Source of the DNA: Membranipora membranacea
Lineage: Eukaryota > Bryozoa > Gymnolaemata > Cheilostomatida > Membraniporidae
Direction: 5' to 3'
NCBI GenBank assembly: GCA_914767715.1
Contig: OU612067.1
Coordinates: 10,044,001 to 10,108,000 of the forward strand
Length of the DNA: 64,000 nt
Every line of letters starts with the position of its first letter. Within the stretch, counting starts at the first letter, position 1. This document shows, in pieces, positions 26,322 through 58,376 of this stretch. The position numbers and the translations under genes were made by a program. The notes under the pieces were generated by a model. That model saw only the letters and a list, made by a program, of their open reading frames with translations, was not told the DNA's origin and did not search any database.

Positions 26322-27024
26322 TTACAGTGTCGATCCAGAAGCCCCGGCCTGTTCATCATTAGCTGGCGCCTGAGGTGTGCCAGGGACCAAGGTACTGACG
26401 TACCTGAAGTACAGCTCAGTGTTGCTCCTGTTACGGAGCAACGGTACGTGGGAAGAACTATCTAGATAGTTCTTCCGGTCCAGGCTGAGCTGATTCCGGT
26501 ACTCCCTGGGGGGTTCACCCCAGCTGTACTGGCCACCAACACACCGCCAGTCAACCTGCCTCAGGGGACCAAGGTAACCTTCACTCCACTGCAACTCAAC
26601 AGCCCCACCTACATTCACAGTTCTGATGCAGTGCATTGATGAAATCCCTTTAAGGCTGTCAGTCTTAAAAGCACTAGTTGCTACCTGCTTCCAGTCTGAA
26701 AAGTCTCTGAAACTCAGCTCATCAACGATGTACTGGGCCCCAGATTTCTTTGCAGACTGGAAGACCTGGACCCAGTCACCCGGCGTGCCGATCTCTGCAC
26801 CCTCCGAGGCACGCTCAATGGAGGCATGCACAGAGTCGACATCCATGTGACTGTGCCCAGTCTCGAAAAACTTCAGCTCTACTATCCGGCCAGGTCGGCT
26901 GTTGTGGGCAAGATGGACCAAAGCAGCCACAACAGCTCTGTTTTTATTTTGACCTGGACAGCCATCACTGTAGAAAACTATGTGACCACTGTTTGCCAGA
27001 TAGGTCGAGAAGAATTTCTTCAAG
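26322..27024 (-). CDS. C-terminal part of the split RGSNEIATC/GQNKN-family gene
   Basis: The minus-strand frame runs from the insertion point (27024-27029) to the stop at 26322. It has the block HIVFYSDGCPGQNKN, then VELKFFETGHSHMDVDSVHA and SIERA, then a variable tail. This pattern (FSD.C.GQN.N followed by GH...D..H) is widespread in uncharacterised invertebrate proteins; I recall it as DUF7869-like but cannot check. The spacing of acidic residues suggests an RNase-H-like fold, which is inference. Its N-terminal partner lies 24.6 kb away at 51659-53829 and is in the same phase across the CAGGT duplication. Confidence 0.75.
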
Positions 27025-27029
27025 CAGGT
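27025..27029. repeat. Left target-site duplication CAGGT
   Basis: CAGGT lies directly before TGTAACGG at 27030 and is repeated at 51659-51663 directly after the right terminus. Confidence 0.9.
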
Positions 27030-28090
27030 TGTAACGGTCAGCAAATAGCATACCATGACTGATAACTATGACTTATCACATAAACAAATCCTAAAGCTAT
27101 CTCATGCAAAACTTCCTATTATAGCATAGTGAAAGCTTTCTTCATTGTTCAATTATGGGGAGCCCTTTGTAAAAATTTGTCATGTCAATTAGAGCATTGC
27201 ATATGTGATATGCCAAGTTTTATACATGGCATACCAACTTTTATATGTTGCATGTCATAATTTATATATTTATGCCCATTTTTCCATGTTATATGCCAAT
27301 TCTAATGTGTGTTGCATCATCATTCATATGCGATATGCTGACATTCATGCATGCTATTCCAACATACATCCATGATATGCCACCTTTCATACATGACATG
27401 TAATAATTTGTGTGTGATATGTTGAAATTCATGCATGTCACATCAATATTCATGTTTGCTATGCCAAGATTTCTATTTTTGTTGATTCATGTATCCCACT
27501 TGCTAGTTGTCTTCTCTCATTTATGTTATGCCAACATTTATATGTGATATGTCAACACAAAAATTTATGTGGCATCAAGAATTGTCAGCGAGTCAACATG
27601 ACAGACAATGAGAAGTTATCCTCACTTAGCAGAAGCCTGTGCTCCCACTATAAAGATAATTACATGTATAATAGAGAGAACGTTAGGTGTGCATCTTCCT
27701 CGTTCAGTCTCAGCACGGATAGTGTCACCCATTCATCAATTTCCTGCAGTGCCAATCAACAACTCCTTGCTTTGATAAGGCCATGACAAATCACTTTTAG
27801 GTTTGTGTCAGGGCCCTTGTGGTCTTTCTCATCTACCCATGATTTTTGTGTCAATTTTAACACCTTCCTGGTCAGAGTCCAATATGGTTGGTGTGATACA
27901 TATTTAATATTGTACTGTAACTACTGTTACTTACTGAGTTACTGTACTGGTATGATTTTTTTTAGTTGTTAACTCAGCTACCTCCCAGCTAGTACCTAAA
28001 GTGTGACTGTCATGGCCTAATGACATTAACACATATACCCCGCCACAGGCCCCCTGCAGCCCTGCCACACTCCCTATATGCCCACAGTCC
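27030..28090. repeat. Left inverted-repeat arm of the giant element
   Basis: The first ~120 bp match the type-A terminal modules ending at 49355 and 51354 almost exactly in inverse. From about 27150 to 28090 the sequence is the inverse of 47003-47890, including a matching open frame (27523-27786 versus 47522-47259) differing at few residues. The block at 27240-27480 is rich in CATGNNATATGCCA-like units. Nearby, 28041-28085 is itself inverted at about 28193-28245. Confidence 0.8.
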
Positions 28091-28518
28091 ACAGACATCA
28101 TTGATTTGATGAGTTGCAGCCTTGTGTGTGTGTGTGTGTGTGGCAAATCAAATCAAATGTTAATGTCAGTGACCTGCTGTCTGTGCACAGTCGGAATGTG
28201 GGCATCTAGGGAGCGTGGCAGGGCTGCAGGGGGCCTGTGGGTCTTGCCGTGTCAATCGATAATATAATTATATTATAATCACTGTATCATAATAGATTAG
28301 ATCTATGATTTCTGGAATTCTATTGGGAAAACCTTTAACAGTATTGGGCAGAGTTGAAGTGCTCATCAATTTTGTGTGCGAGTATCTCATCAGCAAGTAA
28401 TACAATCTTCACTTACCCCAATCCTATAAAACTGCACACATTTACAGTTGGAGTTATAGACCATAGTGTATCTAACTAAACCCAGTAATCCTTGTTTTGA
28501 TGGCTCCCTCAGGTCCCG

Positions 28519-31500
28519 ATGGCTGGTGCGTATAAGATTGATGTCAGCTATGATCAGTTGCTGCAGTTGCTTGACTGTCACACTACAAAGACGGAGATAG
28601 CCTGTTATTTTCAAATAAGTCGCCCCACACTGAACAGTATCATCACCGATTACGAGCTTCAAGATCTCAAGCAATGGTAAGTTACTTCACTTTGTTAATT
28701 TCAGCTCTGTGACTTTGGTGTGTCAGTTGTAACCACAGCCACTCCTTTCAAGCTTGTTCGGAGGTTATCGTGTCTGTAGGCGGTCATTTAGGGATGGCTG
28801 TAGTTTGAATTGGCCTCTTCTAACCTTACCAAAAAACTTACCCAAAGCGACAAAAGCCAGCAAACATTGGGAATAACCTCAAAAAGGGTTTTTTTCAACA
28901 GAAAAGAATTGAAATGCTTTTATTTTTCCTGTTGCAACTATGGAAATAATAAAAATAACTTGAAAGTAGCCTACGGTATTAGAATCTATAGGTTGTACAT
29001 TCAGGACTGACAGTTTTGTAATTTATAATGTACAGTGTAGTACAGTAGTTCAAATCCTGATAATCCAAAAACCCTGATATTTAGAACAAACATAGTCAGT
29101 CCAGGCCATAGACCTAATATAAAAATTATTTTATTTATTTATATTATATAAAATACTAGCATATATATATATAATATAAATAATTATTTTATTCATATAA
29201 GGTCTATTGTCTCGGCTGAGCACACTGTAATTACCATCGCTTACGTAAAACTTTCACCCATACTTTGAACATTTGACAGCTGACTTTTCAAAAACTAGCG
29301 AACAATTTCACATTTCTCTGAACAATCTTTCTCACCAGTCGGTAGTTGGCCCAGGGGGTCAACTCTCAAACATTCATACACCATGATCATGTTTATAATT
29401 CTTTTTATCCCCTACAACGTTTATGTGCTTCTGAAATCTACCCCCTTTAAGAAGAGTTGAGAGTCGTGATTGACCCCCTAAGAGGATGGTTGATGATCTA
29501 CGCAAATTTTGACCAATTATTTTCAATTTTCTTCTTGGCGAGGTTAGTGTATTGTATGGAAATTCAAAGACCAACAACAACTTCATGAAAAATTTGTCAC
29601 CAGGCATTTGAAGTTACATACTTTATACAGAAGAGAAGACAAGAAATGAAAGGTATATTGATTACTGCAGTGATTCGATCATGGATCCTGATCACTGGTT
29701 GCCATGACAGGGTAAGAAACCTAGGGAAATCTGGGATTGAATACAGCACCAACAATCAGAAAAACTATGGTAGTTTTTGCAGGTTATCGTTGTATTAAGT
29801 CCCAGAATTCCCTGTTTTTTACTCACCAGTAATCGTTAGTAATCGATTATGTAAAAATCTGCATCTCCCTTATCAATCAGTACAGTTAGGATATCTTTGA
29901 GCCCTTCATTGTGCCCATTCATATAGCCACAGAACTTAATCGCATTAGCGGATCTGGACATTGAGCTAGTGGTAGAAATATTCTGTTTTCCATGACAATG
30001 CGCGATCCTCCCACATGAATTACTATCCCCAATATCATGGCCTTCTGTTGTAAATTGGGAAGCATGTTGATTCTGAGCCATTTATGGTTTTCCAGCTTTT
30101 TCCCAGCAGCCTACCGCCGTAGTTGATTCTGCTTAAGTGATAACTCTTAGCAACAGAAGCAGTAAACCTGTAAAACTGTTCCATTGTTTCAGTAAAATCC
30201 CTGTGTAGATAAATTGCATTTTTTCATGTTTTCTGGCAGTTATCCCTTCAATATGATTGAGGGGATAATTCCTACAGAAAATTGGTTTCATGATTTTTTG
30301 AGTCCCCCTCTGGCCCTGAGGGAAGAGAGAGTCTATGCTCCTTAAATCTCAACCCCATATACACCACTAGTTGAACATATAGCATAACTCTAAAGAGAAA
30401 TTTCGATTTGAAGTGGAAAAATACCCCTACAAGTCAGCTATATGTGAATTACAACATTTTTACTTGTGAGTATTCTGAAAACTTATCCTCTACAACTCCT
30501 GCTAAGAGGAGTTCCAAAACGTTTTAGGGGGGTCCCCCCCAAAACGATCATAATAACATGATGATGGTGTATGATTGTTTGAGAGTTGACCCCCTGGGGT
30601 AGTTGGGTTCCTGGGCCATCCTACATGTAAAGTTTGCACTGCATTTGGATGGCAGGTTTATGAGTTAAATTGTTGGGTAATATGGCTGCGTGATTTTCTT
30701 TTACTTTGTTACCATGACAACAGATCTATCGGAGCATAAAAAATTTTTGTCTGTTGGATAATCTAAAAAAAAAAGCTCCCAGTGGGGATGCCTCTGCTCC
30801 TAACACACTTTCAACCACTGTTACACTGATCCTGTGCAAATGTTCATCTTTTATTATTCCATCTACCTGTAAGCATGGTTTGTTCGCAAAAAATACCAAG
30901 CATCATTGATATAGCTCAATTTTTAATCACTGGCTGGAAGCATTCTTCACTCACAGGATGTTTATAAATTAAGCTCCACTTTCCTAATGAGTGAAAGTCT
31001 AGGGTCATGTTGTTGCGTCATGCGCTTTGATGTCATGTTAAATTCTGCTAAATTGACAATACTTTTTCACAGACGTTGCTATACCTTAATGTGTGGTTAT
31101 GTTCCAGCTAGCATCAGAAGAGACTTAGACGCAAAGACTAGGCACCTGGTACCAAGTCTCCGTGCTCTCATTGTGATATCGTTCATCGCACCAGCATTTA
31201 GGTGCGCATGTGGTATAAAAGTTATCATAATGTGAACGCAGAGACTTCGCACTATACACATTATGTCTCTGAGCCTAAATCTGTACAGACTAGGTGGAAA
31301 ACAAATCAATCAAACATATCCATCCTTATGAAAATCGATATCTACACTGACACTCTCCAAAAGAGGAAGTGTAGTGCTAATTCTTATCAACTTTGACCCT
31401 GGTGTGAGACAGACTAACAAAACACCTGGATTAGTTGAAATGTGTGGAACTATTGGAACGTCTTGCTGGAACAGATATCATCAGCTGCATTCCAATGACA

Positions 31501-32864
31501 CGCTAATTGATGATTTTCAGATAAATGTTTGAGTTCTCTAGGCTCCCCATTGTGCTCTATATAAACTTGAGTGGAGGGCAGAAACTTGTCTGTTTTACTT
31601 AAATTGCAAGTTTCTCTCGCACAGTGTTAATTTTGGTTGAGTATCACCAACATTTTATTGTCATATGGAAACCCTGTAGATTCCCAAATTTGCAACAAAT
31701 TAATTTTTAAGCAGCATTTTTCAGTATGACTGTTGAACTGTACCTCTCATTGCCCGGAAAAGTGTCAAATTCAATATTTTACATTTTCATGTGCGATCGT
31801 AAGAGCACTAACCACATGCACATTCAAAACTCCCGGTTCTGTTATGGCATGTTATACCATAGACTATTTTCACATACTATTCACAACAATTTTGTTGCAG
31901 GGCAAGGCTAACTGATGCGGAACTAGACGACATTACTGAGAAAGCAATGGTGAAATTGCCGGGCATCGGAGAACGCATGCTTATGGGCCACTTCAGGTCA
32001 TTAGGTCACAGAGTGCAACGGCGCCGACTCAGGGAGTCAATTAAACGTGTTGATCCGATTGGTGTTGAGCAGCGCCGTGAGAATTTACAACGCAGGATCA
32101 CCAGGCGTGTTTACAATGTCCCACATCCTCACTATATCTGGCACATTGACGGCAACCACAAGATGAATCGCTGGGGCTTATATATCCATGGGGCTATAGA
32201 TGGTTATTCGCGAAGCTGCCTTTACTTGGAGTGTCATAGCAATAACCTGGCTGAAACTGTGTACCAGCTATTTGCAGAGGCTGTTGAAAGATTTAATATC
32301 ATTCCTACACATGTAAGATCTGATTACGGAACTGAGAATGTTCGAGTTTGGGATTTCATGAATGATATCTCAGATTTAACCGGGAGTCCAGCAGTCTTCC
32401 TCGGATCTTCTGTACATAATCAAAGAATAGAGCGGTTCAATCGCGAAATCAATAAAAACATACGTGACAAGTTTGGTGTGTTGTTCAGAATGTTGGAAAG
32501 TCGAGGAATTCTAAATGTTGAAGACTCGCTGGACATTTTCGCCCTCCACTATGTCTTCCTACCCCGAATAAACGAGTCACTCAGAATACTTATGAATTCT
32601 CACAACAACCACCCAGTCAGCTCGGAGGGAAACAAGACTCCTTATCAAATGCTTGCAACAGGAGGATTCGAAGTGCCATACAACAAAGAAAGTGTTGATA
32701 TGACACAGACATTTCGAAATAAAAATGAAATAGAGGAGCTTATTCCTCCTGAATACTTAGAACACATGATTAATACAGTACCATCATTTACAGCTGATAA
32801 TGATCATGGTTGTACCGTTTACGAGGCGATCAGGGAATTTCTACACGCATATTGTTATGAATAA
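28519..32864 (+). CDS. DD35E integrase-type transposase, two exons
   Basis: Exon 1 (28519-28676) starts MAGAYKIDVSY and has a helix-turn-helix (KTEIACYFQISRPTLNSII). The donor TG|gtaag joins in phase 2 to exon 2 at 31901 (WARLTDAELDD...). The protein is about 373 residues. The catalytic core is HIDGNHK (D136), RSDYGTEN (D194) and HNQRIERFNRE (E230), exactly 35 residues between the second D and the E, as in retroviral/IS3-type integrases. YIHGAIDGYSR is the conserved beta strand after the first D. This core is common in animal genomes as a free-standing integrase family (I recall it as rve/rva_4-like). It should cut and join the TGTAAC termini. No reverse transcriptase or gag lies nearby, so it is not part of a retroelement. 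Confidence 0.85.
29107..29208. mobile_element. CATAGACCTAATA foldback MITE, copy 1
   Basis: Begins CATAGACCTAATATAA and ends ATATAAGGTCTATTG with an AT-rich centre. Same family as 39179-39218 and 46897-46949. Lies in the integrase intron. Confidence 0.7.
29350..30599. mobile_element. Nested TIR element in the integrase intron
   Basis: The left end CCCAGGGGGTCAACTCTC and the inverse right end CCCCAGGGGGTCAACTCTC continue as a ~50-bp repeat with few mismatches (AAACATTCATACACCAT versus AAACAATCATACACCAT). TAGTTGG flanks it at 29343-29349 and 30600-30606. At 1.25 kb with no coding region it is non-autonomous, and it would be spliced out of the transposase transcript. Confidence 0.75.
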
Positions 32865-33538
32865 TTTTTTTTCAAGAGACTGACATGAATATACCTCAGT
32901 GTTTTACGACTGTGTGACCTCTGATGCTCTGACAAGGCTTTTCTTACCACCTGCTAAATGCTTTTCACTCTCAGGTAATATATACATATATAAATTGAAT
33001 TGATACATCCAATTTAAGCAGTAACACTAGTGAATACACTTGCAACGCGCTTCATATCCGTTGTGGAATATTATTTATTGCATGTACAATGTTTGCAATA
33101 TTTCAGATCTATGGAATTTAAATATCTGCCAGCATAACACAACCTTTATCTACAAACGCCCATGTAGAAAGCATAAAATAAAAATACAACATTAGCAAAA
33201 TACATACCATACAATGCAGTATAAACGCATGCATAGGCTTACAACAGAAGTTCCCGTTTAAAAGCCACAATTTTGAAATAATACGACAAGGTGTAATAAC
33301 TATTTCTGAAACTTGAAAATCCTTATATTGTCCTAGCCAACTTAGACATACAAGTACGGTACAGACTTTTTTGACGTACAGGTCAACAGTCATCAATACA
33401 ACGGTAATTAGACATGGTATTTAAAATTGGTTTACAGAGATAATTGCATCCTATCAGCAGTGGTACTGCAGTATGAAGGATATTAAACTTCAGACTAATT
33501 ATGTGCCGGTAACACACAATGTTTAGTTGGGTAATATT

Positions 33539-36500
33539 TTACATTGTTCCAAAGAGTTTTGTGCTGAATGCTGTGTCCATCAGCGCCATCAGCCTGGATT
33601 CAGCAGGATAACGAGTAGTCGAATCTGGTGGGATCGGCAAATACATCTGGTTAGCACATGTAGATGCTGTAGGCATCCAGTGCTCATGAGGACGGAAGGT
33701 TATAGTAGGCTTCATCTTGAAACCAAGCACGGGTTCATATCTGCTGCCAGTGGCGAATTCCAGAATATCTTCTGGTGTTATTTTTCCGTTAACTCCTTTT
33801 TGATTTCCACCTGAAAGCAATGACACTATTGAACAACATGTATGTTTTTGCATTAACCAAGGTTAGATTGCCTGAGGGAGGATTTCTCCGCTGTGACAAT
33901 ACTGCTAAGATAGGTCTTCTCATGGTTTCCACTAACAATTAAGAAAGAAAACTCAAGTTAAAGGTTTATAAAAATGACAAGCTGAAACCTATGGAGCGCT
34001 CTTGTTCAGTTTTGAATTTTTAGCAATGTTGACTGCATTTCACAAAGAAATAATGTGAAATAGCTGCATTTTACTTGATCTACCAAAGACAGTTTATCAG
34101 CAAATTCGTGTATGTCACTTTGCTAGTGTTTTAGGCTTGTAGCGGAGGGCCTGAAAAGTGACTTTGTAGCTATGAACTGTAAAGCTAAACTTATTTTTGC
34201 GCAGGAGTGTTCATCGACACCATGACTAACAAGACATAATTATAACATGATTCTCGCTTACCGAAGACGTCTCTGACATATTTATTGAACAGCCCGTAAG
34301 CTTGATCATGTTGTTTTCTCAAATTACTACTCTGGGGAGCATCAGATTGTGTGGTGAATATTCTGAGAAAACGGGAAGGCGTTTCGTGTTTTTGTTTGTG
34401 TGTCATCATCAGCTGTTCCACTTCTTTTATCTCCATCAGCTACAATATTACATTGGCATTAATCCAGGGGCGATTATGACCACTACGGAGAAATTGGCAA
34501 TGGGAGTTATCCTCCCATGAAAAAGAGGCAGACAATTAACATGTCTGAAAAATTGAAAACGGTCAAGTATGTCAAAACGGTTGAACATAGAGTTGATATA
34601 GGGGTTTTTTGGCACATTTTATTCAAATTTCCCAGCTATATCTTTCTGTTTTCTCTACTCCTTCAACGTGTTTTGAGCCCTTTCGGGTTGGATGAGGCAA
34701 CAGAAAGCTAGACTAGGCAGTAAACTTTTTTTTGCAATATACACCCCCTGCATCAATCTCACCTCACGTCTTTTTCAGTAGGGTATGGGAATGATGCCAG
34801 CATTCAACTAAAACAGCAGATTAAAACCTACCAGTTATTTCAAACTTGGAACCTACTACCCACCTTCCAAATGCCTGAGCGCTTCAGTCCACTCTTATAT
34901 TGCTCGTAATGCTCTCCGTCCTTCAATGGCGGTACCGTACATACAGGCCCTCCCTGTAGCACACTCATTCCTATTAAACGAGAATAAGATACTTACACCT
35001 CAATTTGAATACAGTTCATGTCTACTACAGGGTAAAAGTTTATGCGGAGTTACGATAGGAAGCATTGCTGCAATGTTGACAATGTACCAATATTTCCATC
35101 AGGGAATGTGACAATAAGGAAGTACCGTGATATCTAGCCTATAAGACACAGGCCTTTTAAGTGAATCGTCAAATCTGTCAAATTTTCAGGCTTTATCTCG
35201 TCCTAGAATAAACGTTGAAATTAGATTGATTGATTGATTGAGGGAAATATCCAGCTCTCGCTGTGGCAATTCATGGGAATGTGAAAGCGTTAGACTTAGT
35301 ACTACGTGCATGGTGGGGGTGAATCACAATTTTCCCTATAGATAAAGACATAGACATAGAAGGCATTGATAGGAGTTGGTCTAATGCGGGCAAGTCTTGA
35401 TGTAATGTCATGGCCCTAAAAAGATGTTTGCGCATTTAAGATTAAGAAACCATTTGGGAAAACCCGGTAATAGGTCACAGAAGATAACGATTTTTTGTGC
35501 ATGCAGAAGATATAGCTGGCTGGCTGTTGATGAATTTTGCCGCCGAATCTTTATCTGTAAAGAGTGCCGACATTAGGTCTAATTAGAATATGCATTGCCT
35601 TCAATGACACTTGCTTTAACCAGTCAATTGTAGGATGAGGAATGTTTAGCAACAACTGCTTGCTCTTGACAACTTTTGCATTACCCAGAGTGGCTCGGCT
35701 CTGTATTATCCAATATTTGCAAATGTGGCCTGGCCCTGTAAATATCTGGTCCATAGCTAATAAAGTGTACGACAAGACAGTCATGAAAGACCCAAAACTT
35801 CATCAACCAATCATTTTAAATATGTATTGTGGACCTATACGTTGAAAGCCTCCTCATTTTAAACTTTAGTACCTGTGATAAGGCCGTAAACATAGTAGAG
35901 CTGACTGTCAAAATGTCCCTTAATATACACTAGCTCGTTATCATCCTCTGTAAGCATCTCCCTCACTTCTGTGAGAAAAAGGTTGAAAAATTCCTTTCGT
36001 GGACCTCCGTAATCCTCTGCATCTGAATAATAAACAATAATTATGATAAATGAGTGTACAAGAAACCTACAAGTATGGTAAAGATGTGAGAGATTAATCC
36101 TAGACTCTACGCAGGACTCGGGGGGATGGGCCAGCAGAGGACAGGCTCCCTTCTCCCTTATGCACCAAGGAAGACCTAACCCTAAGTAATATAAACAATT
36201 TCCTCGTGATATTGAGGAGTTGTTCCCCCATTTACACTGAGAGAATAACTGCCATTATATTTGGTTTAACACAAATCTAACCAGCAATTTTTTTCCACCA
36301 AGGAATCGTTACTACATACATGAACTATTTTACTGTTTCATCTTCACATAGATTACTAGATCAGACAAATGATTTGTAAATAAGTACTCAGATATTTGCT
36401 GTCCAAACATCTCGGATCTGAATGCCCACTTGAGGCAGTGAAGTATCTGATCGGACAGTGAGTTAATATTCTCTACCTTCCAACCGGAACGAGACCTCTA

Positions 36501-39500: not shown

Positions 39501-42500
39501 TGAGAACAACTCCCTACAAAGATGACTTTGGAAGTGTATAGAACCTCCCTTAACATTGAGAAAGACCTGTGCGTAGTGTAGCATCATTTTGCATAATCCA
39601 ATGCCAGTTTGAGTTCTTTACTGAAGTGTACACTGCACCACACCATTGTTGGTTTGGTAGACCAGACTAGGTGAACGCCTTAGAGCAACATCAGCTTCAA
39701 CTAGAATATCAGAGAATACATTTATATAGGGCATGCCGATATCAATGTGAGACAACTCAAAATTTCACACACCTGGTATTTGTGGACTCTTCATTACCAC
39801 TCTCATTCAAGGAGATAGCTGGCAGGTCATCTCCTTCATCTTTTTCCTCACTGTAAAACATACAATTATACTGATGATACTGATGATACTAATGACTTTA
39901 TCAGCTTTGAATGTTACCACCATATCAGCAAACTCATGGGCTCCTACCTATCGGCAGCTTTGGTTCGTTGGTCTGTCCTGGGTCTTCAAACATCGGTTAT
40001 AATTAGTGTCACAATCGATGCCACTGGCTGAACCAGGCACTTGCATTCAGGTTGCTAATAAATCCTATTGAATAACTGCTTATACAATGAGCAGGGTTGC
40101 AAAGTATCTGATGACAGTCAACTCATCAGAGCTTTTCTAATATGCTAAAATTGGAATGTTCAGGTATATGACTAGGTAGATAGATATAATAATCTCCAAT
40201 CAGTTTGATATTCTAATAAGTTCAATTCAATACAAAATTTCCATACTATCCTTTGCAATTCCCGGTTCGACTTCTCTAAATTTTAAGTAAAAGCACAATA
40301 AATCTTCCATATACATTGTACGTCATTATCTCATTTTGACAATGAAAGTAATGTCATGTTTGGAATCAGCATGCCCAAAAATGTCTAAGACCAGTATTCA
40401 ATTATCACTTCCTGGTTGGGTCTACTGTGAGTTGTCCACCCCTGCACATGCAGAGATAAAAGAGGACAACTGACATTTTTTACTAAAAAAATTTTCTGAT
40501 TCATGATCGAAATTTCAACTGTTTATCATGTTTTATTCAACTCGATACCTCTAAAGCCTCATATTGATTCCTTGGATATTTTTAAGTCCTTACATGCAAA
40601 CCCATCAACATACATTGAATCAAGAGGAGAGCCTAACAAATACCTGCAAACAGTTGTGGCAGTTTATGAGTCAAAGTGACAAGTAAATTGTATGTGCCAT
40701 GTGTAACTGAAAGCTGCATGTTAGGCATTGACCTGTTCAATACATTTCAGACATGCCTATGCCTATCAAATCGATTGAAAATACGAACAATGCAAACATG
40801 AGAACAAGAAACACTTTGCCAACGGAACAGATTTAACTTTGACAACCAACCTTTTTGTGTCCTGTAAATATCATAAATGTTTATAATTACACAAAGGTCC
40901 TGCATGTACACTAATGTACATTTTTACTATCTTTATAAGATCATCGGAAATTAATGATCATAGTGACCAGGGTTTTCCTGGTGAATGCTAGACAAGTGGA
41001 GTGAATTGCCCAGAATTGATAATTATGCATTTTTCCAATAAGAACCTCTTTTCAAGGGTGATAAAGCTTGGGGGTTTGCCTTGGAATTTATAAAACAAGT
41101 TATCAAAATGCACAAAGCATGCTTACATCAAATAGTGATACCGGATTCAAGTTTTAAACTAGGCCTATGTAAGATTCAAACAGCAATGATCGGAAATACA
41201 TTAAGGGCCAGTGATTATTTTCATGATTTCAATATCCAATGAGGTGCTATCAGCATAAAACCTTGATAAAAAAAGCTAAGGTATGCAAAGCATTTAACTA
41301 GCCGACTCCTACTCAGCCAACAAGCTGTCATTCAAGTATCATGCATTTTTTCTCAGTCATTGCTTAATTGATTGGTAGCTGGTAGTTTTCTATCTGAACA
41401 GATAGCTCACCTGCACAAAGTAGCTGTCAGGTAGAGTCACTGCGTCGAGCTCTCTGCTGGGTAAGAGGTATATGTACTTAGACTGTCCGAGAACCTTTTT
41501 GAGGTTAAGAGCATTCAATGTCTGATCTGGTGGCAGATTCGGAGGTACTAGGTTTCGAGAGACATCTATCATAATCTGGGTAACACTAAAAATGAAATAA
41601 GGATGTCATTTAGTACGGAAATAATACTTTTTATAACTATCTGACTTTAAATGGAGTTACCAAGGCAGCTCATGTGTAGGCTACCGAGACATGGTATAAT
41701 AATATTTTGCAACTATTACATTACGTCTATGGTAGGATACAATTAATATACCAGACAAGGATTGCTTGCCCTGGATGGAATGCTAATTCAGCATTAAAAA
41801 ACCCCTCACTTCACGTGTGACGTGACATGTCGTGTCCAAAGATACTCAGTAATTTCTGTACATGTATAATCAGTGTTATATTGGAATGCATCATTAAATT
41901 TATATTTCATCTTAACTAGGTGTAATAAAGGCAAAAGGTATATGCCACAACATGCAGCCGTAAGCCTTCTTCAATGTATCGCCAAGATAGTCATTTAATT
42001 ATTTCAGCTCACATGACACAAACGATTCTACAGGGTGTTGTTGAGAGAAATTGTGAATGGAGATAAAAATTCGGGCCCGCATACGCTACTAGTATAATAG
42101 ATAAGGCATAGAGCTATTGATTGCGGGAATCTAACGAATTGCTAATAATATCTGACGGGCAGGTTTGAAGCTGTATTTGTGTAAAATAAGGTGGGAAAGA
42201 CCTATTTTTGACCAATTTTCTCTGCTTCAATTGGCAGTGTTGACTGTACCCCACATTTAATAACTCCACGCTTTATCTAGTAGCACATACAGCCCAAATT
42301 TTTAACTCCCCACCCAAAATTTGCTCCAAAAGGATCATTACTGTGCTAACAAGCTTCGTACTGAAATGTCCCGTGTATGCAATTTGAGTAGGGCTGTGGA
42401 GAAAAATTGAGAAAGAAATATGTGATATCCTCCGTGTGTGGTATCCATCATTCCAGATTTCATTTCTATGTTGTTGTGACCCATAGACTTAAAGGGGAAC

Positions 42501-45201
42501 ACAACAAAGAAAATTGATGTTGACTGAAAATGAAGAGTCTCTCAGCAGCTTTACCGGATCGGAAACAGAATTTGTCTATCATGCTTAGTTTCCAAGCAAA
42601 TTGAATTTGTATTATGCTTGGGATTTCCCAAAGGATTCCAAGGTTGAGAAAACCAGCAATGAAGCCTCAAAAAATCTTGCTTTCTATGTACAGTAGATCT
42701 CTGAATTCAGTGTCACATAGTTTATTAATAATTGCAGTAGCATAAAACAAGAGCTCGCGTCTTATGCCCTGCTCAGTCCAAAGATAGCATTTAATCGAGA
42801 TTATAAACAAATCAACTTCCTTTTTGTTGACGTCAAATCAAAAATTTCACACTGCTGTAAAATTGAATCCGGCGCACCTAAACAAGTCAAATTTTGTTTC
42901 TGTGCTCAACTACAGTTCCTCCATGAGATATGAGCATTTCAGCAAAATCTATTTTTCACTCCCCCTGTGTTGTGTTTAGCTTTAATTTAATATAATAAAC
43001 ATGGCATCAGTGTCTGTTCTGCTGAACAATTAATTCTATGTCGCAATGTCACAGAAATTCCAACAATATATGTCCCACTTTGGACTGTATAGTCTAAGTG
43101 AGGCACATATCAAGTCCATGATGTGACCAAATCTGACAAAAGGAACCCTTGTACAGTCCCCAGATTTGGAGACTCTCATTAAAGACACCCCCTCTGCCTC
43201 TTTGTGAAGAGGAGCTGGGTTAGCGGCGGGCATGGGTATAAGGCTACAGCAGAAACAAGAGCTTTGGCCAACTTTGTGAGGACTGCATTTCTATGAGTGC
43301 ATACAGGGTACTACTAACCTTGCACCTTTCAAAACACCCACAAACAGTTCATTAAACATCCTTATCATGTCCTGCTTGGTATATGAAAGGGTAATTTCAA
43401 CATTTCCATATGTATGTGCTTGAAGATAAAGTGCAAGTTTTTCCGCCCCCATGGGTACTTTCCTAGCAGACGGGGATGTCATCAGTGTGACTGTTTTTGC
43501 GAACATGCGACCTTGCATCATCCTTCCCCCACTCTGATCACCAGCCCTGTAATAGAAAAAAGTTGTTTATGCTTGGGGCCAGGAACAAGTTGTACAATGG
43601 CCAATTGGGAAACCTAAGGCTGGTCTGATGATTATAATCAAATTGTAGTTGCTGGAATAGCTGAGTACCAGTAGTAACAAATGGCATGTATTTAAATATT
43701 TGAGCCTTGAACATCTGTCAACATGGTGAAATACACTGTTACATACCATTAGGCCATTCAAAATTAATGTGTTGGTCCAGATATACACTTTGGGATCTGC
43801 CCTGGTGAGGGAGGAGGACTTTTATTTTAGGATTTTTGAGTATTTTTACGCTAATTGAGGCACAAAATTGATAACATCCTCTATAATTTGGATATCTGAC
43901 TTCTTTTTCAAGAAAAAAAGAATCAAATGTGCTCAATGTGAGAAGAAGGAAGGTGAGAGATGAGGTATTTTATTTCATCAGACCCCATTTCCTGTGGAGC
44001 TGGAAACTGCTAACTTACCCCCTTGTTAACTGGACCAACACATTAATTTGGAGTAGCTTTACGACGAATGGACACTCATCATAGGCCTACATAATGTTCA
44101 CTTGTTTGAGACAGAACAAAATGACCAAATGTATATACAAGTATTTTAAAACACTTGGGGGACCTGTGCCCACAGGACGCTTCACCCAGGGGCGTATTAA
44201 GCCACCCACGAGTCACATTTTTTCAGCGGGTGTCTCCCCAAAAGGGGATAACTCCCAAAGTGAAAAATTCAACAGATGTGGACAGACACTAGGGGTGATT
44301 GACCCTTCTGAGAAAAAAATCTGGCCTTATTTTTGCGCTAGGTCTACTCCTTACCTGTTATTTCAGCTTTTTTTGTTGAAAACCATGAAAAAATCAGTAG
44401 AACTAGTGGGTGGGATCATCAGTCAATGACACCCCTGGCGTCATTCGTCTGACTGGTTAATTTGGAGGTACAAAAACACATAGATAGTAGATTCTTCAAT
44501 AAAGGTTGCTTGTTATAAGCTGGATTATACAATTCAAACTCAGGGCTTGTCCTGCGGCAGTCAATATCTTCCTTACCATGGAGGAAATGATGAATTACAG
44601 TTACTGTAACACTATGACATGAATGTCGATGCATCAACGTAAGGCAACTATATATTGCCTTTGGAAATCAATTACAATCAATCAATTACAAATCGATTAC
44701 AATTACAACCAATCTTACATTGATGTTGTTGCTGTTACTGTGCGGGTCGTGCAATGGTTGAAAACCAATATACATGTAAGACTATTAGTTGCCATAATCT
44801 TCATAAGCCAGTGTGTAACAAGAACTAGCTGAGGATAGAATGTTTGCTGTATGACGTTACCCTCATTGAGAGATCTTCCATGAAATGGCTGGAAATCTAC
44901 CCATATTCTAGACCGTCAACACCAAGCTTAGGTCTAACTTCGACCAATACATTTGCCTTTTTTTATTTGGGAAGAGGAACATCCCAAAAAAAAAAAAGAA
45001 ACCAATGGATTTTGTCTAGTCTTACTGAACCGAATTTCCTATTTTGGGACCCTATTATTGCATGCTAATTGACAGGGAAATCAATTTTGGAGAAGCATGG
45101 TGTTCAAATGATAAATCATATTCATACCTTCTTCGGGTAGCTCTCCGTTGTGAGGACGGGGGAATTAGCCGGTTACGTAGGTCATTTAAGTCTGACATCG
45201 T
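33539..45201 (-). CDS. HECT-type E3 ubiquitin ligase carried by the giant element
   Basis: Exons with matching signals: 45201-45128 (start ATG 45198, MSDLNDLRNRL), 43546-43319, 41585-41411, 39850-39773 (acidic), 38668-38339 (Ser/Thr-rich), 36733-36477, 36022-35873, an exon ending 34262, and 33810-33539. Phases agree across 45128/43546, 43319/41585, 39773/38668, 38339/36733, 36477/36022 and 34262/33810. The HECT domain starts at YGGPRKEFFNLFL (36022 exon) and ends with MPTASTCANQMYLPI, the catalytic Cys at 33656-33658. The mid-HECT exons between 35873 and about 34444, and the 41411/39850 junction, are unresolved. HECT ligases take ubiquitin onto the cysteine and pass it to substrates. It resembles G2E3-like ligases. 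What it serves in a transposon is unknown; altering host repair or transposase stability is conjecture. Confidence 0.75.
39179..39218. mobile_element. CATAGACCTAATA foldback MITE, copy 2 (40 bp)
   Basis: Near-perfect 40-bp palindrome, CATAGACCTAATATAAATA mirrored to TATTAGGTCTATG. Shortest member of the family in the window. Confidence 0.75.
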
Positions 45202-46229
45202 CTGTAAAGTAAGATCACAATGAATGGATTAGCCTGCACGATGTTCAATTGATCTTATGGGAGCCTAATGGCTAGCATCCACGATCTTGGTTCCTTCTCT
45301 GGTATTGAATGTGTTTAGAACAAAAGCCTTTAGTTTGAAATGCCATGAGCAATGTTTGCTTGATAGTTAGCCTAATTGATATATAAAAAATGGTGAAATA
45401 AAGACAGCAGCACCAATTCGTCCCAATCTAGGCTGTTATGTGTCAAAAAGCATGAAAGTACATTGTTGTGCATCTATCTTTCAATGCCATTTCCCCAAAT
45501 TCTCAGTCCCAGATGTAGCTAGGATAAAAAGTAAAAACAGTTTTTGAAATGGGACAGTCTGGGTCATCCAGTCAGCTGGCTTTTGTGACCAAAATTCTTC
45601 TACTTTCAGAAACGCATAATAGTGCCTAAAATCCTAACTCGGTTGTCAGTCCCTCATATGGCTAAATACACTTCTGCAGGTCAAACTCCACTTTCTACAC
45701 CAGAGAGACACATCGTCCTGTGTTTTGAAGGCTTGGTTAAGCATAATATACTAGGCATAATGCATGTAGACGTAAACAAAATGATCCCAGTTGGTTTGAT
45801 CAGCAAAGAACAAACAAGCAAAGCAAAGCAGCGCTGCTGTGTTGGTCAAACATTAACGGGTGACAACAAGGGTTGAATTGACTACCATAACCAAAGCAAA
45901 CTCACTGGCAATAAACTATAATTAGTATAGTATTTTATAGTGTACCCTGTCACCTTGACACCTTGGGCTCACACCTGCTAGCCTCGGTTGAAGGGGTGGG
46001 GGCAATGGAGTAATATTTTGGGCAATTCAATTGGATGGCGAGTGACATACGTAATATAACATTCTTTTACATACATGTATATGAAATCAGGTGTGAGAAG
46101 CTTGTTCCTTTAAAGTGGGGCAATAAGTAGTCTAACTCATTCACACTCATCATAGCCCCATCTCATAGCATATCCTATTGTTTGAAGGGGCATCCACTCA
46201 ACCAATAAGTCAGAGAGAGTTGGCAAGCC

Positions 46230-46720
46230 TGCAGCCTGCCTAGCTCAGGCAGGCTGTTTCTCGTCTGGTCTGCAAAGTGGACTTTGCCCGGCAGGAGATT
46301 GTGCAAAGGGTCTACTTTGGCCCCATTGGACAGGCGAAAGTGCTTTTCCAGTGAACCAGTCCCGTTGTGGCAAAGTAGACATTTGCATTATCTCCTGCAG
46401 CGCAAACTCTACTTTTGTGACCGGATAAAGCCCCAGGGGGTTCACTCTCCAGAAACCCCCATAGCACTCTGTGAAAGAATTTCAGGGAGGTACCCTTTTC
46501 ACGTTCAACCTATATGAAACCAGTACCCTTTTTGTGAGTCTTTTGAGACAGCACAATGATGATAGATATTCATACCTATTATACTCTGTCCACCTAGGAA
46601 AAAGCACCCTATTTCTTTAAATCACTCTAGAGCACCTGTGAGCTTATAAAGTGCCCCTAAAACGTGGATTTCCTGTTGAGCCGTGTGGGTCATTTTGGTC
46701 AAGTGAACCCCCTGGGGATA
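46230..46720. mobile_element. Short palindromic segment and CCCCAGGGGG-ended MITE
   Basis: 46431-46452 (CCCCAGGGGGTTCACTC) is inverted at about 46702-46718 (GTGAACCCCCTGGGG), giving a ~290-bp element with ends like the nested element at 29350-30599. Just upstream, GCCTGCCTAGCTCAGGCAGGC (about 46232-46253) is a hairpin. No exact target duplication could be set (ATAAA occurs on both sides, offset by one base). Confidence 0.5.
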
Positions 46721-46896
46721 AATAAAGCCTGCCTGTGCTGCCTGGATCCCACTTCAATGTTGCTTTCCAAGCAGCACCCAACTACATGTATTTTCCCTAG
46801 GGCAGCACACTGATTTTGGGAAGCACTACCATAAATCAACTCAATCTTGTAATCAGTGAGCTAGGGTAGCAAAGATTTAATTCTATGAGGGTGGCC

Positions 46897-46949
46897 CATA
46901 GACCTAATAATAATATAATTAAAATATATATATGTATATAAGGTCTATG
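46897..46949. mobile_element. CATAGACCTAATA foldback MITE, copy 3
   Basis: CATAGACCTAATAATAA is mirrored by TATAAGGTCTATG with an AT-rich centre. All three copies in the window lie inside the giant element. Confidence 0.7.
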
Positions 46950-46978
46950 GGGTGGCTATTGCAAAAACAGTGCAGTAG

Positions 46979-47003
46979 AGTTACAAAAGGGCCTTTTGTA
47001 ACT
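46979..47003. repeat. 25-bp perfect palindrome at the inner edge of the right arm
   Basis: AGTTACAAAAGG and CCTTTTGTAACT flank a single G. It sits exactly where the inverted copy of the left arm begins. Confidence 0.85.
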
Positions 47004-47890
47004 CCGACTGTGGGCATCTAGGGAGCGTGGCAGGGCTGCAGGGGGCCTGTGGTCACACTTTAGGTAGCTGAGTTAACAACTAAAAAAAAATCATACCGGT
47101 ACAGTAACTCAGTAAGTAACAGTACTCAGTACAAAATTAAACATGTATCACACCAACCATACTGGACTCTGACCAGGAAGGTGTTAAAATTGACACAAAA
47201 ATCATGGGTAGATGAGAAAGACCACAAGGGACCTGACACAAACCTAAAGTGTGATTTGTCATGGCCTTATCAAAGCAAGGAGTTGTTGATTGGCACTGCA
47301 GGAAATTGATGAATGGGTGACACTATCCGTGCTGATACTGAACGAGGAAGATGCACACCTAACGTTCTCTCTATTATACATGTAATTATCTTTATAGTGG
47401 GAGCACAGGCTACTGCTAAGTGAGGATAACTTCTCATTGTCTGTCATGTTGACTCGCTGACAATTCTTGATGCCACATAAATTTTTGTGTTGACATATCA
47501 CATATAAATGTTGGTATAACATAAATGAGAGAAGACAACTAGCAAGTGGGATACATGAATCAACAAAAATAGAAATCTTGGCATAGCAAACATGAATATT
47601 GATGTGACATGCATGAATTTCAACATATCACACACAAATTATTACATGTCATGTATGAAAGGTGGCATATCATGGATGAATGTTGGAATAGCATGCATGA
47701 ATGTCAGCATATCGCATATGAATGATGATGCAACACACATTAGAATTGGCATATAACATGGAAAAATGGGCATAAATATATAAATTATGACATGCAACAT
47801 ATAAAAGTTGGTATGCCATGTATAAAACTTGGCATATCACATATACAATGCTCTAATTGACATGACAAATTTTTACAAAGGGCTCCCCAT
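47003..47890. repeat. Inverted copy of the left arm
   Basis: Reverse complement of about 27150-28090 with scattered differences, from GGCATCTAGGGAGCGTGGCA to GACAAATTTTTACAAAGGGC. It makes the outer inverted repeat of the transposon about 1.1 kb long when joined to a terminal module. Confidence 0.8.
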
Positions 47891-47892
47891 AT

Positions 47893-49240
47893 TCAATTGT
47901 ACACTGCCCACATATACCATAATGATTTCACTCTTTACCATGAGCTCCTCTGGCGCAGATCATCATCTAGCTATTAGCTCATGGCAGATTGTCACATACA
48001 AAACATTTAACCTTTACTTTAACTCAGCTGACGTAACATACTGTGTGCTATTAAGGCTAATAAGGTAAATAATTCTTCCAACATACTTGATTTTATACGT
48101 CCTACAATTTGATGTATTGAAACATTCTCTATTTTGTATGTTATTGCAAAGCTATTTCTCTGCTTTATGATGTGCCTTTTACAACATAACTTTCACTGTA
48201 CGTCAACTTACTTATCTTTCAACTGTTCTTTACAGTTATTACGAATCAACATGATCCTGTAAAACTACACCTAATAAACCACACACAGTAAACGTTACAG
48301 TAATAACTTATTAGCCTTAATAGCACACAGTATGTTACGTCAGCTGAGTTAAAGTAAAGGTTAAATGTTTTGTATGTGACAATCTGCCATGAGCTAATAG
48401 CTAGATGATGATCTGCGCCAGAGGAGCTCATGGTAAAGAGTGAAATCATTATTGTACATGTAGTCAATGTACAAATGAACAATGAAGAAAGCTTTCACTA
48501 TGCTATAATGCTATGCTATAATGGGAGGTTTTACATGAGATAGCTTTACGATTTGTGTACGTGTTTAGTCATAATTATCAGTCATGATATGCTCTTCGCT
48601 GACCGTTACGGTCAGCGAAGAGCATATCATGACTGATAATTATGACTGATGTTCAGCATGACTTTCCAGATGTCAGGGTGAGAACTGTCATTTCTGTGAC
48701 ATCACAGCGATCAGCACTGATGAGTAGTGTTCTGTTAACACACTGGATTCAAGATACCGAGGAACAGAGCTGAGCTGTAACTCCCTCCGTTGTAGAGTTG
48801 TAGCTCTCAGGTTGAGACTTAGTTATTACTGTAACGTTTACTGTGTGTGGTTTATTAGGTGTAGTTTTACAGGATCATGTTGATTCGTAATAACTGTAAA
48901 GAACAGTTGAAAGATAAGTAATTTGACGTACAGTGAAAGTTATGTTGTAAAAGGCACATCATAAAGCAGAGAAATAGCTTTGCAATAACATACAAAATAG
49001 AGAATGTTTCAATACATCAAATTGTAGGACGTATAAAATCAAGTATGTTGGAAGAATTATTTACCTTATTAGCCTTAATAGCACACAGTATGTTACGTCA
49101 GCTGAGTTAAAGTAAAGGTTAAATGTTTTGTATGTGACAATCTGCCATGAGCTAATAGCTAGATGATGATCTGCGCCAGAGGAGCTCATGGTAAAGAGTG
49201 AAATCATTATGGTATATGTAGGCAGTGTACAATTGAACAA
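47893..49240. repeat. Large inverted repeat, ~410-bp arms, within the right end
   Basis: About 47893-48308 is the reverse complement of about 48831-49240 (shared GGTAAATAATTCTTCCAACA and its inverse, and AGCACACAGTATGTTACG). The spacer holds one terminal module (48307-48608) and the palindrome at 48567-48647. Confidence 0.8.
48567..48647. repeat. 81-bp palindrome: two element termini head to head
   Basis: 39-bp perfect arms (from AGTCATAATTATCAGTCATG to CTTCGCTGACCG) flank TTA. Each arm is the outermost part of a type-B terminus (complement of CGGTCAGCGAAGAGC). This is two termini fused end to end. Confidence 0.9.
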
Positions 49241-51658
49241 TGAAGAAAGCTTTCACTATGCTATAATAGGAAGTTTTGCATGAGATAGCTTTAGGATTTG
49301 TTTATGTGATAAGTCATAGTTATCAGTCATGGTATGCTATTTGCTGACCGTTACACTCCCTCCGAAAACGGCTGACGTTTTCTAGTTATGAGGTCAGCAC
49401 TGTTGTAGTAGCTGCTAGTAGAGATGAGACAACTCCAAAGCTGCTGAGAGTAATTATTGCCGATGAGTTGATGCGATCATATCGTCAAACTCCCTGTTGG
49501 TGAACAAGCCTGATATGCAAGGAGTATTTGATCATGTGATGCGAGTCAATTAACAGTGTGTGGCGTGGAAGTTGGCTGTGAGACTTTCTGTCAATCATGG
49601 GCGAAATCCAAGCGACAGCTCGTTCTGTGTTTCACGAACTGACCTGCGTGTATCCTAGTGCGCTACCGTCCAAAAGACTGCAAATGATCCCTTTATTTAA
49701 ATCCAGTCAATGAATTTGCAGAACTAGGCAATGGTGATGACATTGTTAGTGGAGTTTGTTTGTGGAGTGTGTTGGTGTCACAGCTAAGTTTTGCACTAGA
49801 TAATAGTGACTGATGTTCAGCATTACTTTCCAGATGTCAGGGCGAGAACTGTCATTTCTGTGACATCACAGCGATCAGCACTGATGAGTAGTGTTCTGTT
49901 AACACACTGGATTCAAGATACCGAGGAACAGAGCTGAGCTGTAACTCCCTCCGTTGTAGAGTTGTAGCTCTCAGGTTGAGACTAAGTTATTACTGTAACG
50001 TTTGCTGTGTGAGGTTTATTAGGTGTAGTTTTACAGGATCATGTCGATTCATAATAACTTATTAGCCTTATTTGCACACAGTACGTTACGTCAGCTGAGT
50101 TAAAGTAAAGGTTAAATGTTTTGTATGTGACAATCTGCCATGAGCTAATAGCTGGGTGATGATCTGCTCCGAAGGAGCTCAAGGCAAAGAGTGAAATCAT
50201 TATGGTACATGTAGTCAATGTACAAATGAACAATGAAGAAAGCTTTCACTATGCTATAATGCTATGCTATAATGGGAGGTTTTACATGAGATAGCTTTAC
50301 GATTTGTGTACGTGTTTAGTCATAATTATCAGTCATGATATGCTCTTCGCTGACCGTTACACTCCCTCCGAAAACGGCTGATGTTTTCCAGTTATGAGGT
50401 CAGCACTGTTGTAGTAGCTGCTAGTAGAGATGTGACAACTCCAAAGCTGCTGAGAGTAATTATTGCCGATGAGTTGATGCGATCATATCGTCGAACTCCC
50501 TGTTGGAGAACAAGCCTGATATGCAAGGAGTATTTGATCATGTGATGCGAGTCAATTAACAGTGTGTGGCGTGGAAGTTGGCTGAGAGACTTTCTGTCAA
50601 TCATGGGCGAAACCCAAGCGACAGCTCGTTCTGTGTTTCACGAACTGACCTGCGTGTATCCTAGTGCGCTACCGTCCAAAAGACTGCAAATGATCCCTTT
50701 ATTTAAATCCAGTCAATGAATTTGCAGAACTAGGCAATGGTGATGACATTGTTAGTGGAGTTTGTTTGTGGAGTGTGTTGGTGTCACAGCTAAGTTTTGC
50801 ACTAGATAATAGTGACTGATGTTCAGCATGACTTTCCAGATGTCAGGGTGAGAACTGTCATTTCTGTGACATCACAGCGATCAGCACTGATGAGTAGTGT
50901 TCTGTTAACACACTGGATTCAAGATACCGAGGAACAGAGCTGAGCTGTAACTCCCTCCGTTGTAGAGTTGTAGCTCTCAGGTTGAGACTAAGTTATTACT
51001 GTAACGTTTACTGTGTGAGGTTTATTAGGTGTAGTTTTACAGGATCATGTCGATTCATAATAACTTATTAGCCTTATTTGCACACAGTACGTTACGTCAG
51101 CTGAGTTAAAGTAAAGGTTAAATGTTTTGTATGTGACAATCTGCCATGAGCTAATAGCTAGATGATGATCTGCGCCAGAGGAGCTCATGGTAAAGAGTGA
51201 AATCATTATGGTATATGTAGGCAGTGTACAATTGAACAATGAAGAAAGCTTTCACTATGCTATAATAGGAAGTTTTGCATGAGATAGCTTTAGGATTTGT
51301 TTATGTGATAAGTCATAGTTATCAGTCATGGTATGCTATTTGCTGACCGTTACACTTATTAGCCTTAATAGCACACAGTATGTTACGTCAGCTGAGTTAA
51401 AGTAAAGGTTAAATGTTTTGTATGTGACAATCTGCCATGAGCTAATAGCTAGATGATGATCTGCGCCAGAGGAGCTCATGGTTAAGAGTGAAATCATTAT
51501 GGTACATGTAGTCAATGTACAAATGAACAATGAAGAAAGCTTTCACTATGCTATAATGCTATGCTTTAATGGGAGGTTATACATGAGATAGCTTTACGAT
51601 TTGTGTACGTGTTTAGTCATAATTATCAGTCATGATATGCTCTTCGCTGACCGTTACA
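49065..51658. repeat. Array of four terminal modules and a 1,006-bp tandem duplication
   Basis: Modules of ~290-304 bp starting CTTATTAGCC and ending GACCGTTACA lie at 49065-49355, 50058-50361, 51064-51354 and 51355-51658 (a fifth is 48307-48608). Two terminal versions alternate: A (TGCTATTTGCTGACCG) at 49355 and 51354, and B (TGCTCTTCGCTGACCG) at 48608, 50361 and 51658. 49356-50361 and 50362-51354 are tandem copies at very high identity. Only the 51658 end abuts the target duplication. Confidence 0.85.
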
Positions 51659-51663
51659 CAGGT
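51659..51663. repeat. Right target-site duplication CAGGT
   Basis: Directly follows GACCGTTACA; identical to 27025-27029. Confidence 0.9.
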
Positions 51664-58264: not shown

Positions 58265-58376
58265 GTCCTTTTATACACAGAGAAATGACTGGCCTGCACC
58301 TGGGGCTACTGGCATTAGCACAGGGCGCTAGGCCTCTTCTGAGCTCATCAGACCTAGCACAGAACAAAAATCCAAT

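What the first reader, a model, noticed from the sequence alone, without database searches (positions are those of the whole stretch)
27030..51658. Giant (24.6 kb) cut-and-paste transposon pairing a DD35E integrase with a HECT ubiquitin ligase
The ends are exact: TGTAACGGTCAGC inverted termini, a 5-bp CAGGT duplication, and a host reading frame in phase on both sides. Inside, only two genes are recognised, both spliced and convergent: an integrase with an intact D-D-E triad and a HECT ligase with its catalytic Cys. A transposon that carries its own ubiquitin ligase suggests manipulation of host proteins or control of transposase turnover. I recall related integrase/HECT pairings in animal repeats, but the full-length architecture and size here may be undescribed.
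Basis: partly seen in the sequence, partly recalled or inferred. Interest (0 to 1): 0.9.

Follow-up and report, generated by a model that had tools for sequence, protein, structure and literature searches.

The report
Jumping gene carrying ubiquitin ligase, nested
What looked like one 24.6-kb jumping gene is two, one inside the other: the outer is a small gene-less element, and the inner is a 20.7-kb transposon whose integrase and ubiquitin-ligase genes occur together at several other places in the same animal genome.

Summary
The raw observations hold: TGTAAC ends, CAGGT duplication, restorable host frame, DD35E integrase, HECT ligase. The boundaries do not. The TGTAAC ends belong to a separate, short, gene-less foldback-like family: 0 of 35 hits outside the window lie within 0.9 Mb of an integrase, HECT or inner-repeat hit. 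Both genes sit in another transposon nested in it, 27154-47891 (20,738 bp): TATGGGG..CCCCATA ends, 830-bp inverted repeats (816/828 identical), 6-bp duplication TTCAAT; relatives of the outer element show the empty site. TA..TA ends, 6-bp duplications and an IS481/IS3-like integrase point to the IS3EU/GingerRoot superfamily. Other insertions of the inner family (C4, C7, C8) have the same repeats, integrase and HECT, 15.6-31 kb long; the C4 copy keeps six HECT exons open. Two divergent loci (integrase 53-54% identical) keep the tail-to-tail order. Ten library searches listed no paper on a HECT gene in such transposons; Repbase could not be searched. The ligase's role is inferred.

The parts
27025..27029 (.). 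CAGGT, 5-bp target duplication of the outer element (left)
27030..27153 (+). left piece of the outer, non-autonomous TGTAAC element (its last 6 bases are the inner element's left duplication)
   Evidence: 27030-27154 matches 49231-49355 and 51230-51354 inverted at 100%; 41 genomic hits
27148..27153 (.). TTCAAT, 6-bp target duplication of the inner element (left)
27154..47891 (.). inner IS3EU-like transposon, 20,738 bp, TATGGGG..CCCCATA
   Evidence: inverted repeats, duplication and empty site; other copies
27154..27983 (+). left terminal inverted repeat of the inner element, 830 bp
   Evidence: 816/828 identical to the right repeat
28519..28677 (+). integrase exon 1: ATG and helix-turn-helix-like N-terminus
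   Evidence: sequence and phase; weak HTH hits below cut-off, best E 0.017
29350..30598 (.). 1,249-bp element nested in the integrase intron, 8-bp duplication GTAGTTGG
31902..32864 (+). integrase exon 2: DD35E rva_4 core to stop codon
   Evidence: AlphaFold2 mean pLDDT 84.4, best PDB matches retroviral integrases
33539..33810 (-). HECT last exon with catalytic Cys and stop codon
34262..34439 (-). HECT exon
34864..34970 (-). HECT exon
35873..36022 (-). HECT exon (AEDYGGPRKEFF)
36477..36733 (-). HECT exon
38339..38691 (-). HECT gene, first exon found (5' limit uncertain: ATG at 38691 or acceptor before 38668; exons further upstream not found)
47062..47891 (-). right terminal inverted repeat of the inner element
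47892..47897 (.). TTCAAT, 6-bp target duplication of the inner element (right)
47898..51658 (.). right part of the outer TGTAAC element: shuffled, tandem and inverted copies of its ~300-bp end module
51659..51663 (.). CAGGT, 5-bp target duplication of the outer element (right)
51664..51921 (-). disrupted DUF7869 reading frame, part before the insertion
26325..27029 (-). disrupted DUF7869 reading frame, part after the insertion

Best explanation
Shown by sequence: three layers. A DUF7869 reading frame was hit by a non-autonomous TGTAAC..GTTACA foldback-like element (5-bp duplication). That element was later hit, 124 bp from its left end, by a 20.7-kb DNA transposon of IS3EU/GingerRoot type (TA..TA ends, 830-bp inverted repeats, 6-bp duplication) that carries a two-exon DD35E integrase and, tail to tail, a multi-exon HECT ubiquitin ligase. 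The inner transposon is a family with several insertions in this genome, and integrase and HECT recur together inside it. Inferred: the integrase binds the long inverted repeats through its helix-turn-helix-like N-terminus, cuts the ends and joins them to target DNA with a 6-bp stagger. Inferred more weakly: the HECT protein is an active ligase acting in trans for the transposon, most likely by ubiquitylating host chromatin, repair or silencing proteins (my estimate 0.35); otherwise it sets integrase turnover or helps dismantle the strand-transfer complex (0.3), or it is cargo without a role in transposition (0.35).
For: Nesting: the two flanks of the inner element, aligned to 11 loci of the outer family chosen out of 15, match at 260/290 to 293/295; 10 of 11 have a single gap and L020 three, and in each the aligned columns fall 6 short of the span, as one extra TTCAAT predicts. 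A 22-base uninterrupted junction (up to 3 mismatches) is present in 15 of 15. No inner sequence in any of the 15 with the low-complexity filter on (blastn E<=1e-3; tblastn E<=1e-2); with it off, one 55-bp AT-rich match in L019. Outer family has its own 5-bp duplications: 6 of 15 loci gave an element with matching flanks, 545-1683 bp. Inner family: 32 hits of the inverted repeat; of 8 end pairs compared, 6 have identical 6-bp flanks (four distinct sequences: TTCAAT, CACAAG, CCGTAA, AAAACA), C4 5/6, second C8 pair 4/6. 7 of 7 integrase copies at >=91% identity lie between these repeats, or for the two halves of one split copy beside one, and each of the 7 has HECT exons next to it. C4: six HECT exons, borders and frame intact. 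Integrase: IS481 E 1.2e-11, IS3 E 4.9e-5, both below the curated cut-off. Two divergent integrase loci (53-54%) have a convergent HECT C-lobe 1.4 kb away.
Against: No named IS3EU or GingerRoot protein was at hand, so placement rests on termini, duplication length and IS481/IS3 similarity, not on a tree. The C7 copies share flanks and look like duplicates of one insertion, the two C8 copies share a left flank, so independent full insertions number about four (window, C4, C7, C8). Three C5 HECT loci have no integrase hit at >=91%. 7 of 11 divergent integrase loci show no HECT hit within 3 kb, and in two of the four that do both hits are on one strand. Between window and C4 HECT genes 9 of 16 differing codons are non-synonymous: no sign of strong purifying selection. 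The HECT 5' end is unresolved. The residue after the catalytic Cys is Ala where AREL1 has Phe. No ends were found for the two divergent loci within 10 kb. No expression, excision or ligase data.
Confidence: 0.88

Rival explanations
1. One reading: one 24.6-kb TGTAAC transposon with a 5-bp duplication that encodes integrase and HECT.
For: Exact TGTAAC inverted ends, CAGGT duplication, restored host frame.
Against: 0 of 35 non-window hits of the TGTAAC end lie within 0.9 Mb of an inner-repeat, integrase or HECT hit (coordinates; one search scored 40 of 52 candidates; 26 of the 35 also read as sequence judged by coordinates only). The genes recur with TATGGGG ends. Exact 6-bp duplication and empty site at the inner junctions.
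Confidence: 0.03
2. The HECT gene is captured cargo that rides with the integrase but plays no part in transposition.
For: Three C5 HECT loci lack a close integrase; 9 of 16 differing codons between two copies are non-synonymous; five weak HECT hits (C5:27.911, C5:26.920, C2:6.456, C2:25.804, C10:11.570 Mb) have no integrase hit within 3 kb.
Against: 4 of 11 divergent integrase loci have a HECT hit within 3 kb, two of them convergent, so the association is older than this family. The C4 HECT exons are all open. Exact 12- to 14-base seeds between 32865-33538 and 38692-47061 gave no ends of a separate HECT element, only one AT-rich inverted match.
Confidence: 0.35
3. The HECT protein serves the integrase itself: it ubiquitylates integrase to limit its dose or to help dismantle the strand-transfer complex.
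For: The two genes are adjacent, and two divergent loci keep the tail-to-tail order. [quoted passage not shown]
Against: No direct evidence; substrate unknown.
Confidence: 0.3

Closest known systems
IS3EU/GingerRoot DNA transposons (PMC10045372; passages and section 3.3 read)
   Same: TA..TA termini, usually 6-bp duplications, DDE transposase of the IS3/IS481 group
   Different: this one is 15.6-31 kb with 830-bp inverted repeats and carries a HECT ligase; no tree with named members was possible
Fungal TET+ IS3EU families (PMC12730594; passages read)
   Same: 6-bp duplications, TAYGG..CCRTA ends (here TATGG..CCATA), inverted repeats over 30 bp, a second enzyme gene in opposite orientation to the transposase
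   Different: second gene there is an alpha-kinase, with a TET/JBP dioxygenase between; here a HECT ligase in an animal genome
Ginger1 and Ginger2/TDD (PMC2836005; passages read)
   Same: integrase-like transposase; Ginger1 transposases carry OTU or Ulp1 protease domains, also ubiquitin/SUMO-related
   Different: TGTNR ends and 4- to 5-bp duplications; the protease is a domain of the transposase, not a separate ligase gene
HECT E3 ligases (AREL1, E6AP, NEDD4 family)
   Same: GGPR region and C-lobe with the catalytic Cys; profile match to AREL1 E 8.5e-14
   Different: 26-33% identical to the ten relatives found in two searches (one search scored only the 7993 candidates sharing most words); encoded in a transposon

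Membership tests
IS3EU/GingerRoot | TA..TA termini | tested here: met
   TATGGGG..CCCCATA in 8 of 8 end pairs, which were picked by that motif; variants TATGATGGGG in L046 and L050 and CCTCATA in L054, no terminus found in L056
IS3EU/GingerRoot | usually 6-bp target duplication | tested here: met
   exact in 6 of 8 pairs (four distinct sequences), 5/6 in C4, 4/6 in the second C8 pair
IS3EU/GingerRoot | IS3/IS481-like DDE transposase | tested here: met
   17 of 17 members of alignment A1 hit the IS481 and IS3 models at E<=0.01; the window protein scores below the curated cut-offs
IS3EU/GingerRoot | no HHCC zinc motif upstream of the core | tested here: inconclusive
   no zinc-binding Pfam domain in the 373-aa spliced protein; motif not looked for residue by residue
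IS3EU/GingerRoot | clusters with named members in a tree | not testable with these tools
   no named IS3EU or GingerRoot sequences held
Ginger1/Ginger2 (inner element) | TGTNR termini with 4- or 5-bp duplication | tested here: not met
   TATGG termini, 6-bp duplications
Ginger2-like (outer element) | TGTNR termini, 4- to 5-bp duplication | tested here: met
   TGTAA ends and 5-bp duplications in 6 of 15 loci; 9 of 15 gave no matching pair in the stretch read
Ginger2-like (outer element) | cognate transposase | not tested
   no search was made for the outer family's own transposase
HECT E3 ligase | HECT domain with catalytic Cys | tested here: met
   PF00632 31.3 bits, cut-off 23.9; Cys400 invariant in 9 aligned proteins
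HECT E3 ligase | ubiquitin transfer activity | not testable with these tools
   needs biochemistry

The most novel reading that the evidence does not exclude
An old animal lineage of giant IS3EU-like transposons has a two-gene core, integrase plus HECT ligase in tail-to-tail order, in which the ligase is required for mobility: a transposon-owned ubiquitin ligase that reprograms host proteins or its own transpososome.
Probability: 0.4. Interest if true: 0.8.

Novelty: new variant of a known kind. Interest (0 to 1): 0.62.

Why it matters
A ubiquitin ligase that moves with its own integrase as a linked pair, with the same tail-to-tail order kept at loci whose integrase differs in almost half of its residues, would be a natural test case for how transposons use the ubiquitin system. 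The case also shows how nested ends can mislead: the visible outer ends were not the ends of the gene-bearing element.

Tried and rejected
Rejected: TGTAAC ends as the ends of the gene-bearing transposon. Rejected: HECT inside a further nested element, as far as exact seeds of 12-14 bases show. Not supported: the ORF at 43291-43566 as a HECT 5' exon. Led nowhere: integrase alignment against viral contigs, 20 pattern matches, 0 relatives; genome contigs gave 3 relatives in 6 pattern matches, all short contigs filed under a sponge-symbiont MAG, with no HECT at E<=1e-2; a scan of the two divergent loci for TA ends with a 16-base inverted repeat and 6-bp duplication gave no candidate in 10 kb. Ten of ten literature searches used: by title and abstract start, no listed paper describes a HECT gene in an integrase-type DNA transposon; some lists were cut (15 of 5,947, 20 of 73, 15 of 17). 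Repbase and Dfam were not available. All 35 papers holding 'IS3EU' were seen as listing only, except the two cited.
Full report
Observation. That frame matches DUF7869 (PF25273) at E 1.5e-8, residues 77-206, across the junction. But the same 13-mer also occurs exactly at 49343-49355, 50349-50361 and 51342-51354, and 47892-51658 is a tangle of tandem and inverted copies of a ~300-bp end module. The long inverted repeat does not start at 27030; it runs from 27154 to 27983 and pairs with 47062-47891, 816 of 828 aligned positions identical.

Two elements, not one. In the own genome (339,339,785 bases, 18 contigs; window = C3:10044001-10108000) the first 125 bp gave 41 hits, 6 of them in the window (40 of 52 candidates scored, so a lower bound). 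I read 15 loci covering 26 of the other 35 hits. They consist of the same module as 47892-51658 and the first 125 bp. With the low-complexity filter on, none has sequence of 27154-47891 and none encodes integrase or HECT; with it off there is one 55-bp AT-rich match in L019. Six of the 15 show an element of 545-1683 bp with identical 5-bp flanks; three of these six (L014-L016) share a flank or its reverse complement and may be one duplicated insertion; nine gave no matching pair in the stretch read. The remaining 9 hits were judged only by position: none of the 35 lies within 0.9 Mb of a hit. So the TGTAAC family looks short and gene-less here. Its sequence runs without a break across the point where the window has 20.7 kb: the junction 22-mer is present, with up to 3 mismatches, in 15 of 15 loci, and the two flanks of 27154-47891 align to the 11 loci that I chose at 260/290 to 293/295, 10 with one gap and L020 with three, the aligned columns falling 6 short of the span in each, as one extra TTCAAT predicts. 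The inner element thus begins TATGGGGAGCCC, ends GGGCTCCCCATA, and is flanked by TTCAAT on both sides.

The inner element is a repeated family. Its 830-bp repeat gave 32 hits, which pair up at C4:27002518-27029394 (26.9 kb), C7:6379130-6410268 (31.1 kb), C7:6627094-6650916 (23.8 kb), C8:10601222-10616871 (15.6 kb), C8:10469778-10486348 (16.6 kb), a short derivative at C11:2394771-2395986 (1.2 kb), and a C7 copy split between 6118252 and 7010267; other hits on C5, C6 and C11 were not resolved into elements. Six-base flanks agree fully in 6 of 8 pairs compared, the window included, 5/6 in C4 and 4/6 in the second C8 pair. The C7 pairs share CACAAG and are probably duplicates of one insertion; the C8 pairs share a left flank.

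The two genes occur together. Integrase copies at 91% identity or more number seven: window, C4, three on C7 (two whole, one split in two at about residue 82) and two on C8 with in-frame stops. All seven lie inside these repeats, or beside one for the halves of the split copy. Four are open over the whole exon. HECT exons at 74-98% identity are found at ten places: beside each of those seven integrases, and at three C5 places 5-17 kb from hits of the repeat but without a close integrase. In C4 the six HECT exons align at full length with borders and frame kept, 16 codons differing from the window (7 synonymous, 9 not). In the C7 copy read (one of three) the last five exons are whole with AG/GT borders and the first is cut by the edge of the stretch. 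The two C8 copies have a gap in two exons (L058) and one exon (L060); their first exon lies at or beyond the edge of the stretch.

Divergent relatives. Eleven other integrase loci (33-56% identity) are listed; four have a HECT hit within 3 kb: C8:20.757, C3:24.726, C5:26.636 and C5:27.439 Mb. In the first two the genes are convergent with 1.4 kb between; I did not test whether these two loci are one family. In the two C5 cases both hits are on the same strand. Seven of 11 show no HECT hit, and five weak HECT hits have no integrase within 3 kb. So linkage is common but not universal, as far as this sensitivity shows.

Proteins. Integrase: exon 1 28519-28677 joins 31902-32864 in phase, 373 aa. 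D82, D140 and E176 (numbering of the exon-2 protein) give DD35E. The AlphaFold2 model of exon 2 (17 sequences, mean pLDDT 84.4) finds retroviral intasome integrases first in the PDB (best E 3.8e-4; TM-scores by query length 0.29-0.44 in the first twenty, so partial matches). NCBIfam: IS481 1.2e-11, IS3 4.9e-5, both below cut-off. HECT: six exons, PF00632, profile match to AREL1 E 8.5e-14 and E6AP E 8.9e-10. Ten protein relatives over two searches, among them one from Dreissena polymorpha and one from Paramuricea clavata.

How it probably works. DDE chemistry with a 6-bp stagger follows from the triad and the duplications (inference from established integrase biology). Excision was not shown. 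The ligase's substrate is unknown. I favour action for the element because the gene order persists at divergent loci and an intact second copy exists, but the codon differences between two copies show no strong constraint, and cargo is a live rival.

Known or new. TA..TA ends, 6-bp duplications and an IS3/IS481-like transposase are the published marks of IS3EU/GingerRoot (PMC10045372); fungal members carry an alpha-kinase in opposite orientation and TET/JBP genes (PMC12730594). Ginger1 carries OTU or Ulp1 protease domains (PMC2836005). A HECT gene in such an element was not among the papers listed by ten library searches; Repbase and Dfam were not searchable. I rate it a new variant of a known kind. 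The host is an animal by its gene content (my inference); its species was not identified.

Noticed in passing
29350-30598: 1,249-bp element with 44-bp inverted ends CCCAGGGGGTCAACTC and exact 8-bp duplication GTAGTTGG, nested in the integrase intron.
   Followed up: partly
46431-46717: 287-bp stretch with similar ends (CCCCAGGGGGTTCACT, 16 bp exact inverted); no clear duplication.
   Followed up: partly
47892-51658: Outer element's right end is built of repeated end modules in both orientations, with two end variants (125 bp identical to the left end, and 86-88% alike).
   Followed up: partly
58332-61031: Non-LTR retrotransposon-like reading frames; reverse transcriptase PF00078 E 6.2e-36 in 59085-60665.
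   Followed up: no
2222-2644: CUB domain frame (PF00431 E 1.1e-6).
   Followed up: no
G000 C7:6118252-6123293 and 6991495-7010267: One inner-family copy is split between two places about 0.87 Mb apart at integrase residue 82; its outer flanks still share CACAAG, which suggests that a rearrangement broke it.
   Followed up: partly
L001-L003: Three contigs of a Cycloclasticus symbiont MAG (host sponge Poecilosclerida) encode relatives of this animal-type integrase, 37-43% identical; perhaps sponge DNA in the bin.
   Followed up: partly
L048 (G000 C11:2394771-2395986): 1.2-kb derivative with the inner family's ends and exact AAAACA duplication.
   Followed up: partly
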